From Candidatus Jettenia sp. (GTDB lineage: Bacteria > Planctomycetota > Brocadiia > Brocadiales > Brocadiaceae): DNA of 64,000 bases. The notes under the pieces are model-generated. The model was not told the DNA's origin. It searched no databases and saw only the letters and a list, made by a program, of their open reading frames with translations. Position numbers and translations under genes: made by a program. Below, piece after piece: positions 24,341 through 31,065 of the stretch (the first letter of the stretch is position 1; every line of letters starts with the position of its first letter). The DNA is taken from the NCBI GenBank assembly GCA_021650895.1, contig CP091278.1, positions 1,827,659 to 1,891,658 on the forward strand, written 5' to 3'.

Positions 24341-25725
24341 AGAAAAGCAGCAACACAATTTACCATTTACCATACACGTGCTTATCTTTATCCTGAATTT
24401 CCTAAAACATACCTTATTTTATGCTCCGTACGGATCAATTTTCAAAACGGAAAAATAATATCATTGGGTAAAGAAATGGACTGCATAGCCTTTACCTCTA
24501 CACGATAACTATCCATGTCAATCGTTTCGAGAATCCCCTTCGAGGGGTCTTCTCCTATCGGCGCTGGCAACTTGGAAATTAAAAAATTTAGGAATATGGA
24601 TAGCTTTTCCCATTCGGCATTCGTGTAAGGTAAAATGGAAGCGAGAAAACCATAGGTACGGACAAATGCCTTTGCCTTCCCTTTGAAATCGACCTGTCCG
24701 TCTTCATCAAGATCGGACTTATAAGTAACTACACATGTATCGAGTATTGGGTCTATCTGATCACGATCAGCGCCATTGAGATACCGTGAAACCAATTCCT
24801 CGATCTGACCATTTCCATATACTTGATAACCGTCCAGATCTGCTTTTAAATCGTGAAGTTTATTGGGATCTATCTCTTCACTGAGTATCGTAGTACGATA
24901 GTAATCGGCAAAGGCAGCCTGTATCGTGCTGACATCGTTCATAAAATCGAGTACAAAGGTATCATATTTTTTGGGGTGTGCACGGTTTAACCGTGAAAGT
25001 GTCTGTACTGCCTTTATTTCTGAAAGTTGTTTATCCACATACATTGTGTGTAACAAGGGCTCATCATAACCCGTCTGAAATTTATCTGCTACTATGAGAA
25101 AGCGATAAGGGTCTTCCTGTTTTTGACGAATTGCATGGTCGTGTGATTCTACATATCGGCGAAGTTTCTTTTTGGCCCTCTTTGTATCAAATTCCGGGTC
25201 ATCTTCAACGGTCTTCATCAGACGGTAATAGCTGTCCACCGAGGTATAACTTTTCAGTACATCGAGAATAAAGCCTTCCTGAATCGCCTGTTTCATGGTG
25301 TAGCAATGGAAAGGGTGGTGTTTGACTTTATCGCCTTCGCGATACGGTTCGCCAAAAATTTCCAGGGTTTTATTTTTAGGAGTTGCGGTAAAGGCGAAAT
25401 AACTCGCATTGGAGAGCATCTTTCTCGATTCAATAATAATGAGTTCTTCAAAAATGGTACCCATCGAATGGTTATCAAGGGCTGGTAACTTGACATTCCC
25501 GTCCGAATCACAAACAGGATTTGAACTAAGATTGATAGTGGTATCAAGAAACTTTTCAATAACATGCCCAAGAATATCTACTTCGACCATAGTAGTATAC
25601 TGTCAATATAATTCATGATAATACGGTTCAACTGCATGGGGCTGTGTCATTGCGAGGGTATTGTCCGAAGCAATCCCCCTGGACATTTCAAAAGAGATTG
25701 CTTCGGGAAAATACCCCTCGCAATG

Positions 25726-27233
25726 GTAATATGAAAAAGCAGCGTCCTTCCAAGGAGGTTAAAAAGCCTTGAACAGGCAATAACCTTTTGTGATATTAAA
25801 TATCATAAAGGCTTTAGACCACCAATGAAGGTAGAGTAAGACTTTAAACCTTGGAAAGGAGGCTGTATGATAAAGTATAGAGGATTGGATGCACATTCGT
25901 CAACATGTACATTCAATGTAACGGATGAAAGAGGGAGGGAAGTAGACAACACGACGATTGAGAGCAACGGTCGGCTTTTGGTGAAGTATTTGAGGGGCAT
26001 AGAGGGTGTTAAGAAACTGACCTTTGAAGAGTGTGAATTAAGCAACTGGCTCTACGAGATATTAAGACCAGAAGTAGATGAGTTGATCGTATGCAATCCA
26101 GTAGCAAATGGTGACTACAAGAAGAAAAAGACGGACAAGATGGATGCCCGGAAGCTGTCGAATCTTTTACGAGGAGGCTTTCTCGTAGCCGTATATCATG
26201 ATGGTTCAAAGCGGGAACGGTTGAGGAGTTTAATGTCAGGGTATCAGGATTTCATTGAAGAAGGTGTGAGGCTAAAGAACCGATACAAATCCTTATTTCG
26301 GAAAAGTGGGAAGAAAGTCAAAGGTGAAGCGTTATATAACGATGAGAGTTTCCTTGAAGGATTAGAGCGAGCAGACTTTAAATTTATTGGTACGCAGATC
26401 TATCAGCTTTTAGAGAAGATGGAAGAAAGCAAGCAGGAATATGGAAAAGAGATCGTTCGATGCAGCAAGGGATTTCAAGAGATAAAATATCTCAAGAGCA
26501 TTCCCGGTATTGGGAGTATCCAGGCGGCGAAGACCGTCTCCCAGGTAATAGACCCGGAAGAGATTTAGCAGTAAGTACAAATATTACAGCTACTGTGGGC
26601 TGGTGAGGCATAAGAGGATAAGTGGCGGCAGGGGATATGGGAGTGAAAAGATTTGGGGAAATCGGATATTAAAATGCGTATACAAGATGGCAGGACATTC
26701 GGTTTTAAAGGGTAAGAGCGGTTTACGGAATTATTACGATACCTTGCGATTGAAAGGTATCAGTCATGACAATGCCTATAATGCAGTATGTCGTAAGATA
26801 GCGGCAATATCTTTAAGCGTATGGAGGAAGAGTGAGAAATATAATGACAGACTGATCACCAGCAATCTCATCAAGTAAAACAGGGTAAGAAGGCATGAAA
26901 GGCTGGTTCGCACTTGTTTTCTTGAGAGAGGGATGAGATCCAAATGTCATTGACCCAAAGAGGTCCAACGCAATGGTTGATCCGCCCTCGTTTAAATCTA
27001 AAATTACCATGCTCAGCAAAGAGCACCGATAGATGACTGAAAACCGATTGCCAAAGGTATTTCAGAGAAGGTAAGAGAAAGAGAACGATAATAACCCGTT
27101 TGTCATTCATGCACTCGATACTTTAATAGCTTGATTGGCCCCAGTTAAGCGGGAAGGACGCATGGCAAGAAAACAGTTCCCTTGTTTTTTTGTCAACAGG
27201 GACATTATTTTTTCTTGACATGCTTTTTCATAG
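25726..27233 (+). mobile_element. IS110-family (IS1111-like) insertion sequence
   Basis: About 1.5 kb inserted into the MITE right at the edge of the REP-like palindrome (CTCGCAATG). Near its ends TATGAAAAAGCA (about 25730) and TGCTTTTTCATA (27221-27232) are inverted repeats. The transposase occupies 25867-26878, leaving 140 bases on the left and 355 bases of non-coding DNA on the right. Subterminal inverted repeats and a long 3' non-coding end fit the IS1111 group, where the guide (bridge) RNA is expected downstream of the transposase. No such RNA was resolved by eye. Confidence 0.8.
25867..26878 (+). pseudogene. IS110/IS1111 transposase with a frameshift
   Basis: The first frame (25867-26568) holds the N-terminal DEDD RuvC-like domain: GLDAHSSTCTF with its Asp, FEECELSNWL, and CNPVANGDYKKKKTDKMDA with Asp residues. 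It also holds SIPGIGSIQAAK of the Tnp_20 domain. A stop follows at 26566. The next frame, open from about 26566, continues the domain with SYCGLVRHKRISGG and ends with IAAISLSVWRKSEKY. Skipping one base near 26563-26566 (GAGATTTAGC) restores about 337 residues. It is inactive as read, unless the shift is a base-calling error. Confidence 0.85.
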
Positions 27234-28229
27234 ATGACAAATACGAGAGAGTCTATTATGGTAAATTAAGTTGACAGTGTAGTAGGTATCTGGTTCCTGA
27301 ATTTAAATTTATCGAGAATCTCTTGTACGTTTGGCGAAAAACCGTCAAGATACACCTCAAAATCTGCCCTCAATTGCTGCTGTTTAGCCCGGTTTCGTAA
27401 ATCGCGAAGGGTAAACGCTGAAGTATTATAGAAAGCCTGACCGGATGCCTTGCAAAGAGCCGCATGTTGATGAGAAATACCTGCATCATCAAGCTGCTTC
27501 TTCATCTTGAGAATAGATTCCTTTGTTGGTTCAAGAACAGCGTCAAGCCGGCGAATAACGGTCATTGGGAGAATCACATCCCGATATTTCCCCCGAACGT
27601 AAACATCCCGAAGCACATCATCCGCAATACCCCAAATAAAGTTAGCGATTGCAGTATGCTGGTTATGATTCATATTTTACCCTCGTCTATAAGACTTACT
27701 CTGTAATATTTATTTGCTTAACATTCACCACGGATGACAGTTGCATGAATACATTATTTCCGCATACATTCAACGTGAAAGAAGTGTAACAGCATTTGAA
27801 TATTAATCCTTTATGAAATATTCATATACCTTGCCTACCTTGCCCAATACATCTTTTGCTTTGCCCTGAAGCAATTTCTATCGCGCAAAAGGTAGCGCAT
27901 AAAATACCTTTAAGGTATCATAGGGGGCAAAAACTTAAACCGGACACTTTATATATGAAACGATTTTTGTTGTCAAGGTATTTAATGGTTCATAGAATTG
28001 AGCTTGGTAAAATGAGCCAAGAATGTGCATGGATGTACATAAAATTTATAAAATATTAACCACAGATGGACTCGGATATACACAAATAAGATAGCAGACT
28101 AAATATCCTCTTTATTAATTTTTGTACAATTGTGTACAAGTATGTACGTAATCGCCTATTAAAACTCAAAATAATTATCCTCACAACAATTAACCTTTCA
28201 TACATTAAAAAACTGATAAAATTATCATG

Positions 28230-28343: not shown

Positions 28344-28359
28344 TGGCATTTTTCTTGCT
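28344..28359 (+). promoter_or_regulatory. Sigma54 (-24/-12) promoter candidate before the c-di-GMP riboswitch
   Basis: TTGGCATTTTTCTTGCTA, with GG at 28345 and GC at 28357 exactly 10 bases apart. A transcript starting near 28371 would include the riboswitch (from about 28455) and then the regulator gene at 28693. Confidence 0.65.
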
Positions 28360-28454
28360 AAATACTTTTATTTAAAACGTTTATAAAGATCATAGCAAGT
28401 ACTGTTGATATTAAATCGGCTCTTTTGAAATAAAGGCTTTTGATAAAAGCCCGA

Positions 28455-28535
28455 AAATGGCAAAACATTCGAAAGGATGTGGCGCAAAGCTACTGGCCTA
28501 AGTCCTCTTACAGGATATGGTCGCAGGGTTGCCGG
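28455..28535 (+). promoter_or_regulatory. Cyclic di-GMP-I (GEMM-I) riboswitch
   Basis: The family core is read in order: TGGCAAAAC, the GAAA-tetraloop hairpin ACATTCGAAAGGATGT, GGCGCAAAGC, TACTGGCCTAAG, the second hairpin GTCC...GGAT with its ATGGTCGC receptor part, and AGGGTTGCC closing the P1 stem with GGCAA. It can be laid base for base on the Vc2 aptamer. It sits 160 bases before the start of a receiver-GGDEF-methyltransferase gene. The expression platform is unclear: I see no strong terminator hairpin between it and the gene, so control may be at translation. Confidence 0.93.
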
Positions 28536-28692
28536 AAAAGATTATCTCATTATATGATTGTTTTAGTACAATTATATTTTTGTATAAACGAGATACTACG
28601 ATCATAATATTTTCATATTTATAACCCACCAGTAGTTACATCTCTATTTGCGTCATTCCTGTTGCTACAGTATATTTCCTTAAGAAAATAAA

Positions 28693-30402
28693 ATGGCTTT
28701 AGAAACTGTAAAAAATCGCCTTGTTAAACAACCGCCCCATCTTCGCATTCTTGTGGCTGAGGACGAGGAATCAGTTCAGCAGGTTTTAAAGATTACGCTG
28801 GAGTATGAGGGACATTATGTTATCATAGTGGAAAAAGGCGAGGAAGTCTTTTATACCTTAGAATCAGAAACTATAGATCTTCTCATTTTGGACAGTGATC
28901 TTCCCAATATCTCCAGTATTGATATCTGTTATTATTTACTGAATGACCTTTTGTGGCAATCACTACCCATTATCATGCTTACAGAGGATCAGACTATTGA
29001 AGATAAGTTGAAAGGTCTGCATGAGGGTTTGGACTATTACATTGCAAAACCATTTACAACTGATGAGTTACTCACATGTCTGCATAAGGTTTATGAGTAT
29101 TATCGATGTACCAGAGAAGTTAGTCCTCTGGCCCGACTACCCGGCAATATCGCAGTGGAAAGGGAAATTAGCCGCAGAATAGTACAACAGCATAAGTTTT
29201 CAGTATTGTATTGTGATATTAATCATTTTAAATCATACGATGATACTTATGGCTTTATCCATGGGGACGCCGTCATACGCTCTACAGCAAGAATTCTTTT
29301 GTCATGTACAGACCATCATAAAGACTTCGCAGGATATATAGGTGAGGATAACTTCGTCATTGTAACTTCTCCGGATAGAGCCACTTCTATTTGTGAATCT
29401 GTTATTGAAAAGTTCGATACCCTGATTCCAAAGCTTTATGATGAGTCTCATCGAATAGCAGGATTTGTTGTAACCCAGGACCGTGAAGGAGTTCTGCATA
29501 AATTTCCCTTAATTTCAATTGCTATCGGCGGTGTAAGCAATGAATGGAAAGAGTTAACTTCGGTGAGAGAAGTTAGTACTATTGGCATAGAGATGAAGCG
29601 TTTTGCCAAGCAAAAGGGTAAGGGGAAGTCTGCCTATGCTTTTGATCGCCGCAGGAATCTGATCAGAGAGGATATTACTTCTTATCTCAATAAAATTGCC
29701 TTTGAGGACGCTGGGGGGACATCGTATATTTTTAAAAAAAGCCATCAAAGACGGATTGCAAAAGTCCTCCAAATGATTAAAAGTGAACTATCGGTACTTC
29801 AGAACAAAGGCAATATAGAATTATTGAGTATTGGTTGTGGAAATGGGATAATTGAAAAGCAGATCATGGACCTGGGAATCAAGGTTTGGGGAGTAGATTC
29901 TTCCAGCAAGGCTCTTATCGAGGCTCAAAAGAAGGGTATAGAGGTTTCTGTTGCTGATGTTACTGAAGGCTTACCGTATGATACTAATCGATTTGATATG
30001 ATATTTGCAGGAGAAATCATCGAACATATTATTGATACTCAAAAATTTCTGCTTGAAGTTAAAAGGGTTTTAAAACCAGGAGGAACTCTTATTCTTACAA
30101 CCCCAAATATGGGCAGATTGATTGATCGCATTCGGTTTCTCTTTGGAAAAGCACCAAAACACGCTTCTCCTCTGAATATTTTACATGTCCGGCCTTTTAC
30201 TTTTGATTCTCTCAAAACAGCTCTGGAAGATGCCGGATTTACCGTAACCAAGATAGCATCGAACGTAATGGCTTACGATTTCACGTTGATATTCAATTTT
30301 AAGTCCACCTGGTTGTCTAATCTTTTTCCAACACTTGGGAAAAATCTTATAGTTAAGGCTTTTTCGTCCCATGACCATTTCCGAAAACTCAAAACAGTAT
30401 GA
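28693..30402 (+). CDS. Response regulator: receiver, degenerate GGDEF, SAM methyltransferase
   Basis: 569 residues. The receiver covers about 17-135, with Asp67 in LLILDSDLP and the Lys of AKPF. A GGDEF-type domain covers about 150-310: LYCDINHFKSYDDTYGF keeps the first metal Asp, but the signature reads YIGEDNF instead of GGDEF, so diguanylate cyclase activity is doubtful. A class I SAM-dependent methyltransferase covers about 365-490, with SIGCGNG (SAM loop), GVDSSSKAL and FDMIFAGEIIEHI, then VLKPGGTLILTTPN. A c-di-GMP-I riboswitch and a sigma54-type promoter precede it. This suggests output controlled by both phosphorylation and c-di-GMP. The methyl acceptor is unknown. An HD hydrolase gene follows after 39 bases and may be co-transcribed. 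Confidence 0.88.
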   Translation: MALETVKNRLVKQPPHLRILVAEDEESVQQVLKITLEYEGHYVIIVEKGEEVFYTLESETIDLLILDSDLPNISSIDICYYLLNDLLWQSLPIIMLTEDQTIEDKLKGLHEGLDYYIAKPFTTDELLTCLHKVYEYYRCTREVSPLARLPGNIAVEREISRRIVQQHKFSVLYCDINHFKSYDDTYGFIHGDAVIRSTARILLSCTDHHKDFAGYIGEDNFVIVTSPDRATSICESVIEKFDTLIPKLYDESHRIAGFVVTQDREGVLHKFPLISIAIGGVSNEWKELTSVREVSTIGIEMKRFAKQKGKGKSAYAFDRRRNLIREDITSYLNKIAFEDAGGTSYIFKKSHQRRIAKVLQMIKSELSVLQNKGNIELLSIGCGNGIIEKQIMDLGIKVWGVDSSSKALIEAQKKGIEVSVADVTEGLPYDTNRFDMIFAGEIIEHIIDTQKFLLEVKRVLKPGGTLILTTPNMGRLIDRIRFLFGKAPKHASPLNILHVRPFTFDSLKTALEDAGFTVTKIASNVMAYDFTLIFNFKSTWLSNLFPTLGKNLIVKAFSSHDHFRKLKTV

Positions 30403-30441: not shown

Positions 30442-31065
30442 ATGAAGTTTAAAAATAATCCTCCAATCGACTATATAAAGGAAAAAAAGGTCAATGAGGT
30501 TATAAAGATATATTTTGAGTTTAATCACTTAAAACAACTCTATAGGCAAGGTTGGCTATTGAAAAACATTCCGGAAGAGAAATGTGAGAGTGTGGCTGAT
30601 CATATCTATGGAGTAACCATGCTTTCTTTTGTTGTCGCCCATGAGTTTTTTCCTGAATTGGATATAACCAAGATTATCAAAATTGCTCTCATACACGATT
30701 TGGGTGAAGCGCATGTAGGAGATTTGACACCTCACGATCAAATACATCCTCATAAGAAGGAAAAAGATGAATACGAGGCGATTGCTCAAATCCTTTCAAA
30801 ACTTTCTACGGGAAAGATGTATTTGAACTTATGGAATGAATTCCGGAACCAGAGTTCTTTAGAGAGTAAATTTGTCAAACAAATGGACCGTCTGGAGATG
30901 GCTTTGCAGGCAAGCGTTTATGAGAATTTAGGTTACGGGAATATGCAGAATTTTTTTGATCATGTACAAAAAAAACTATCAGATGAGGAACTTAAGAATA
31001 TATTTAAAGACATAGGCTATATCAGACGAAGGTCTTCTGGTATTGATTTTAAAATGCCGGAATGA
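30442..31065 (+). CDS. HD-domain hydrolase (HDDC2/YfbR-like, putative 5'-deoxynucleotidase)
   Basis: 207 residues, one HD domain. The metal ligands are visible as the His of ESVADHIYG, the HD pair in ALIHDLGEAHVGDLTP and the Asp in VKQMDRLEMALQA, the pattern of the HDDC2/YfbR deoxynucleoside-monophosphatase group. AAGGAG lies about 7 bases before the ATG. It lies 39 bases downstream of the receiver-GGDEF-methyltransferase gene on the same strand, so it may be under the same riboswitch-controlled transcript. Confidence 0.82.
   Translation: MKFKNNPPIDYIKEKKVNEVIKIYFEFNHLKQLYRQGWLLKNIPEEKCESVADHIYGVTMLSFVVAHEFFPELDITKIIKIALIHDLGEAHVGDLTPHDQIHPHKKEKDEYEAIAQILSKLSTGKMYLNLWNEFRNQSSLESKFVKQMDRLEMALQASVYENLGYGNMQNFFDHVQKKLSDEELKNIFKDIGYIRRRSSGIDFKMPE

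What the first reader, a model, noticed from the sequence alone, without database searches (positions are those of the whole stretch)
28344..30402. c-di-GMP riboswitch plus sigma54 promoter drive a receiver / broken GGDEF / methyltransferase protein
A clear c-di-GMP-I aptamer at 28455-28535 precedes a gene whose GGDEF signature is IGEDNF, so the product probably does not make c-di-GMP. Receiver, degenerate GGDEF and class I methyltransferase in one chain, expressed in response to c-di-GMP, would couple phosphorylation and second-messenger state to methylation of an unknown target. I know of no described system of this form.
Basis: partly seen in the sequence, partly recalled or inferred. Interest (0 to 1): 0.87.

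Follow-up and report, generated by a model that had tools for sequence, protein, structure and literature searches.

The report
Riboswitch-controlled receiver–pseudo-GGDEF–methyltransferase protein
An ammonium-oxidising wastewater bacterium (Candidatus Jettenia) places an RNA switch for the biofilm signal c-di-GMP in front of a rare three-part protein that joins a phosphorylation receiver, a worn-out c-di-GMP-making domain and a methyl-transferring enzyme, which may tune the chemistry of its cell surface when it builds biofilm.

Summary
The window is from Candidatus Jettenia (anammox, Brocadiaceae). A c-di-GMP-I aptamer lies at 28449-28536 (81.5 bits, E 1.8e-14), behind a sigma54-type site (28344-28359), ahead of a 569-aa protein: receiver, GGDEF-like, class I methyltransferase. 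All are conserved in three Jettenia genomes. The GGDEF belongs to a widespread REC-GGDDF family; Jettenia has lost three residues invariant in the relatives aligned (N183D, G218E, D220N), while receiver and methyltransferase motifs are intact and all domains are under purifying selection. The methyltransferase fusion was seen in only four genomes, all Brocadiaceae. The fourth (63% identity) keeps GGDDF, lacks the riboswitch and has altered receiver and SAM-site residues. The riboswitch is one of 24 in this genome; it shares aptamer type and sigma54-like promoter with riboswitches ending an exopolysaccharide cluster. Methyltransferase relatives sit in polysaccharide loci, and an anammox S-layer glycan is heavily methylated (PMC5088730). 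Best reading: a c-di-GMP/sigma54-controlled, probably phosphorylation-gated methyltransferase with a non-catalytic GGDEF regulatory domain. The surface-glycan target is inference; the direction of the switch is unresolved. New combination of known parts, not a new kind.

The parts
28344..28359 (+). sigma54-type promoter (-24/-12) TGGCATTTTTCTTGCT
   Evidence: Exact GG-N10-GC spacing, shuffle p about 0.01; identical in three Jettenia genomes; similar sites before two other aptamers of the same type
28449..28536 (+). c-di-GMP-I riboswitch aptamer (RF01051), GAAA-tetraloop type
   Evidence: 81.5 bits, E 1.8e-14; conserved in G001 and G002 at 81.9 bits
28552..28582 (+). AU-rich hairpin followed by a U run, terminator-like, uncertain
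   Evidence: Folds in all three Jettenia leaders, z -2.1 to -2.9; one G-U to G-C change
28588..28668 (+). Leader strand complementary to the aptamer (includes CCAGUAGUUACAUC), candidate switching element
   Evidence: RNAduplex -40.9 kcal/mol against mean -27.9 in shuffled leaders, 1 of 500 as good; aptamer fold disfavoured by 9-11 kcal/mol once this stretch is transcribed
28693..30402 (+). 569-aa response regulator: receiver, degenerate GGDEF, class I SAM methyltransferase
   Evidence: Pfam; full-length homologues in 4 genomes; dN/dS 0.13-0.24 over the whole gene in Jettenia
28747..29079 (+). Receiver domain (aa 19-129); E23/D24, D67, T97, K119 retained
   Evidence: Pfam 4.9e-20; alignment; AF2 pLDDT mostly 66-91, one ten-residue block at 47
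29143..29697 (+). GGDEF-like domain (aa 151-335) with YIGEDNF at aa 215-221; N183D, G218E, D220N
   Evidence: Pfam 1.1e-14; alignment with 14 relatives; AF2 pLDDT mainly 75-94 over aa 151-320, low after 320
29779..30267 (+). Class I SAM methyltransferase domain (aa 363-525)
   Evidence: Pfam 5e-19; PDB 3cc8 3e-16; motif I LSIGCGNG and WGVD retained
30442..31065 (+). HD_3 (YfbR-like nucleotidase) gene 39 nt downstream, probably on the same transcript
   Evidence: Pfam HD_3 1.6e-37; similar spacing in G002, about 186 nt in ecosi

Best explanation
The gene encodes a response regulator whose output is a SAM-dependent methyltransferase. Its middle GGDEF domain has lost cyclase function and probably serves as a structural or nucleotide-sensing regulatory module. 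Transcription starts from a sigma54-type promoter, and a c-di-GMP-I riboswitch in the leader makes expression depend on c-di-GMP (direction not established; ON is more likely by analogy with other riboswitches of the genome). It belongs to a larger c-di-GMP-I riboswitch regulon of the anammox cell that includes exopolysaccharide and surface genes, so the enzyme most likely methylates a cell-surface glycan or its lipid-linked precursor. Shown by computation: aptamer, promoter-like site, domains, residue losses, selection, gene context. Inferred: c-di-GMP binding, direction, phosphorylation gating, substrate.
For: Aptamer E 1.8e-14, kept with the sigma54 site in three Jettenia genomes. Jettenia departs at N183, G218 and D220, which all 14 aligned relatives hold. 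Receiver and methyltransferase motifs intact; dN/dS GGDEF 0.09-0.19, MTase 0.06-0.15. Two other aptamers of the same GAAA type have sigma54-like sites; one is at the end of a cluster with a sugar transferase, a beta-barrel porin and beta-helix proteins (Pfam) and flippase-like and glycosyltransferase-like proteins (read from the sequence). Free-standing MTase relatives mostly flank glycosyltransferases, CDP-alcohol transferases, NDP-sugar enzymes or a polysaccharide-type ABC ATPase (read from the sequences). The Kuenenia S-layer glycan carries up to five methyl groups, one of them variable (PMC5088730). Several other riboswitches here end in a terminator whose 5' arm is the aptamer's 3' strand, an ON design.
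Against: The gene is not in a polysaccharide cluster, and class I methyltransferases are often found in such loci anyway, so the target inference is weak. The leader shows no clear terminator or sequestered ribosome site tied to the aptamer. No cognate kinase was identified. No binding or enzyme data exist. AF2 did not model the MTase with confidence.
Confidence: 0.55

Rival explanations
1. Same regulation, but the methyltransferase acts on a quinone, membrane lipid, protein or other small molecule rather than a surface glycan.
For: The MTase matches UbiG, UbiE and phosphoethanolamine methyltransferase profiles and structures as well; the gene stands alone next to an HD nucleotidase.
Against: The UbiG match is far below its curated cut-off (60.5 against 102.95 bits); nearest free-standing relatives sit in polysaccharide loci.
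Confidence: 0.3
2. The GGDEF domain still makes a cyclic dinucleotide, so that riboswitch and protein form a feedback loop.
For: D175, D219 and K180 at the metal and phosphate positions are retained; a GGDDF enzyme, GSU1937, is active (PMC8835794).
Against: G218E, D220N and N183D hit the motif and the base-recognition position; a GADDF mutant of a GSU1937 fusion was inactive, and GEDEF protein CC3396 has only phosphodiesterase activity (PMC8835794).
Confidence: 0.05
3. The gene is a decaying fusion with no current function.
For: Patchy presence: four genomes of the family, absent from the second genome of the genus that includes G005; the stretch upstream holds transposase and restriction-modification fragments.
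Against: dN/dS 0.13-0.24 and intact frames in three Jettenia genomes; aptamer and promoter preserved.
Confidence: 0.07

Closest known systems
REC-GGDDF response regulators (Chloroflexi, Actinomycetota, Planctomycetes; L036, L037, L025, L108-L113)
   Same: Receiver plus the same GGDEF subfamily with GH[IV]GGDDF and the DR insertion, about 30-41% identity over aa 15-320
   Different: No methyltransferase in those read; motif intact; no c-di-GMP-I aptamer in L036, L037 or L025
P. aeruginosa PA3258-type EAL-GGDDF proteins
   Same: Described as a GGDDF/EAL protein that did not change c-di-GMP levels (PMC8835794); gammaproteobacterial EAL-GGDDF proteins were retrieved here
   Different: EAL instead of receiver and MTase; the PA3258 sequence itself was not compared here
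Caulobacter CC3396 (GEDEF-EAL)
   Same: Second G of the motif replaced by E; non-cyclase GGDEF joined to another catalytic domain (PMC8835794)
   Different: EAL phosphodiesterase output, no riboswitch known to me; its regulation by GTP is from general knowledge
c-di-GMP-I (GEMM-I) riboswitches
   Same: Aptamer meets the RF01051 model in full
   Different: Controls an unusual enzyme; expression platform not recognised
PDB 3cc8 putative methyltransferase
   Same: Closest solved sequence relative of the MTase domain, E 3e-16, including the HxRxFT region
   Different: Free-standing, function unassigned

Membership tests
c-di-GMP-I riboswitch (RF01051) | Sequence and structure score above gathering | tested here: met
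   81.5 bits against 35, full model
c-di-GMP-I riboswitch (RF01051) | G at the ligand-recognition position (G20) rather than the A of the cGAMP type | tested here: inconclusive
   Sequence reads UGGCAAA, i.e. G at the expected place; mapping to G20 rests on my knowledge of Vc2 numbering, not on a tool
c-di-GMP-I riboswitch (RF01051) | Binds c-di-GMP and switches expression | not testable with these tools
   Needs binding and reporter assays
Active diguanylate cyclase | [G/A/S]G[D/E]E[F/Y] motif | tested here: not met
   GEDNF or SEDNF; motif definition from PMC8835794
Response regulator receiver | Acidic pair, phospho-Asp, Thr/Ser and Lys | tested here: met
   E23 D24, D67, T97, K119; Pfam 4.9e-20
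Class I SAM methyltransferase | Glycine motif I and acidic residue after strand 2 | tested here: met
   LSIGCGNG and WGVD; Pfam 5e-19
UbiG | NCBIfam TIGR01983 curated cut-off | tested here: not met
   60.5 against 102.95 bits
sigma54 promoter | -24 GG and -12 GC with correct spacing, above chance | tested here: met
   14.4 bits, p about 0.01
sigma54 promoter | Transcription start and enhancer-binding activator | not testable with these tools
   No transcript data; an NtrC-type regulator lies near another aptamer, link untested

The most novel reading that the evidence does not exclude
Anammox bacteria use c-di-GMP, through a riboswitch, together with a phosphorelay acting on the receiver and a nucleotide-sensing pseudo-GGDEF, to set how much their surface glycans are methylated; a response regulator whose output is glycan methylation would be a new output class.
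Probability: 0.25. Interest if true: 0.75.

Novelty: new variant of a known kind. Interest (0 to 1): 0.5.

Why it matters
It would tie the biofilm signal directly to a covalent modification in bacteria that work as granules in nitrogen removal, and give a concrete candidate for how surface-glycan methylation varies in anammox cells. It also shows a GGDEF domain apparently being turned from a catalytic-type into a regulatory one in the lineage that has the riboswitch.

Tried and rejected
Looked for an intrinsic terminator or hidden ribosome site under aptamer control: only an AU-rich hairpin that forms in both states and a strong anti-aptamer strand were found, so direction is left open. Looked for a relic aptamer in the G005 orthologue at relaxed threshold: none. 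Pseudogene reading rejected on dN/dS. Looked for the REC-GGDEF-MTase order in 392 genomes of the phylum and 251 of the phylum of L036: only the four Brocadiaceae genomes cover the MTase at the thresholds used. AF2 gave good receiver and GGDEF models but no usable MTase model, so no fold search was run. Paper searches for the combination found nothing.

Full report
Identity. The window is G000:C1:1827659-1891658 of a single-contig 3.82 Mb genome. The protein is 97% identical to one in Candidatus Jettenia ecosi J2, so this is an anammox planctomycete of the Brocadiaceae (family assignment is established knowledge).

Observation. The aptamer is certain: RF01051 at 28449-28536, 81.5 bits, E 1.8e-14, with the GAAA tetraloop and receptor. 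Upstream, TGGCATTTTTCTTGCT at 28344-28359 matches the sigma54 consensus with exact spacing (shuffle p about 0.01). The ORF at 28693-30402 encodes receiver (4.9e-20), GGDEF (1.1e-14) and methyltransferase (5e-19) domains. The start codon is supported by the orthologue in G005, which aligns from its own ATG. An HD_3 gene follows after 39 nt and is probably co-transcribed, although the gap is about 186 nt in ecosi.

Conservation. Full-length homologues occur in three Jettenia genomes and in G005, another genus of the family at 63% identity, out of 33 family genomes, and nowhere else among 392 genomes of the phylum at E 1e-32, where the other hits stop near residue 320. The second genome of G005's genus, G012, lacks it. 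The aptamer and sigma54 site are kept in the Jettenia genomes, while G005 has no aptamer even at relaxed threshold and different neighbours.

The GGDEF domain. It belongs to a subfamily with GH[IV]GGDDF and an insertion carrying a DR pair. The subfamily is found as REC-GGDDF in Chloroflexi (48 of 251 genomes at E 1e-45), Actinomycetota and Planctomycetes (L025, L098) and as EAL-GGDDF in Gammaproteobacteria. In the 14 relatives aligned, N183, G218 and D220 do not vary; Jettenia has D, E and N. G005 retains N, G and D but has K180T. GGDDF can be active, as in GSU1937, and a GADDF change abolished that; PA3258 with GGDDF appears inactive and CC3396 with GEDEF has only phosphodiesterase activity (PMC8835794). 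So cyclase activity of the Jettenia protein is very unlikely. The domain is still constrained, dN/dS 0.09-0.19, and AF2 models most of it well, so it probably has a regulatory role.

Reciprocal change. Jettenia keeps E23/D24, D67, T97, K119 and the SAM motif WGVD; G005 has D24N, T97V and CGIGL in place of WGVDS. With only one non-Jettenia sequence this is suggestive, not proof, that the output moved to the methyltransferase in Jettenia.

Regulon. This genome holds 24 c-di-GMP-I matches, and the 21 Brocadiaceae genomes searched hold 1 to 56. Two kinds are visible: a GAAA type (including the window) and a second type, several of which end in a terminator whose 5' arm is the aptamer's 3' strand, so that aptamer and terminator exclude each other, an ON design. 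Among the GAAA type, sites at 3092978 and 95908 also have sigma54-like promoters (p 0.003 and 0.007), present as pattern matches in G002 for both and in ecosi for one. The 3087-3093 kb aptamers close a polysaccharide cluster with sugar transferase, beta-barrel porin and beta-helix proteins (Pfam) and flippase-like, polymerase-like and glycosyltransferase-like proteins (my reading of the sequences).

Leader. 28588-28668 is strongly complementary to the aptamer (1 of 500 shuffles as good), and the aptamer fold is 9-11 kcal/mol worse than the competing fold once it is made. This suggests a switch, but I could not link it to a terminator or ribosome site, so the sign is open.

Methyltransferase target. 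Free-standing relatives at 28-38% identity mostly neighbour glycosyltransferases, CDP-alcohol transferases, NDP-sugar enzymes, radical SAM proteins and a polysaccharide-type ABC ATPase (functions read from the sequences). The Kuenenia S-layer O-glycan carries up to five methyl groups on six sugars, one variably (PMC5088730). A surface glycan is therefore my first guess, at perhaps 40%.

Verdict. A real and conserved three-domain protein under a c-di-GMP riboswitch. Each part is known; the combination was not found in the papers searched. New variant of a known kind.

Noticed in passing
G000, G009, G013, G017, G020 and other Brocadiaceae: Anammox genomes are very rich in c-di-GMP-I riboswitches: 24 here, 35 in G013, 56 in G020 at E <= 0.001. 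No paper found in the library describes this.
   Followed up: partly
G000:C1:3092636-3093066 (L059); also G016:C38:4619-5001, G039:C132:34241-34537: Tandem c-di-GMP-I aptamers 200-350 nt apart; in G000 the pair precedes a beta-helix gene.
   Followed up: no
L061 (G000:C1:2035800-2041300): A GAAA-type aptamer stands about 1.3 kb upstream of an NtrC-type sigma54 response regulator, a possible activator of the sigma54/aptamer genes.
   Followed up: no
window 24442-27673: Apparent remnants of a type I restriction-modification system and an IS110-like transposase lie upstream; judged from the sequences only.
   Followed up: no
L028 and L029: Brocadiaceae EAL-CBS-like-GGDDF proteins; the matches in G009 and G013 cross in-frame TGA codons.
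   Followed up: no
L071 (G000:C1:669500-684000): Two near-identical, divergently placed c-di-GMP-I aptamers with matching upstream regions each precede a large gene of over 1000 aa, apparently a recent duplication of the switch.
   Followed up: no
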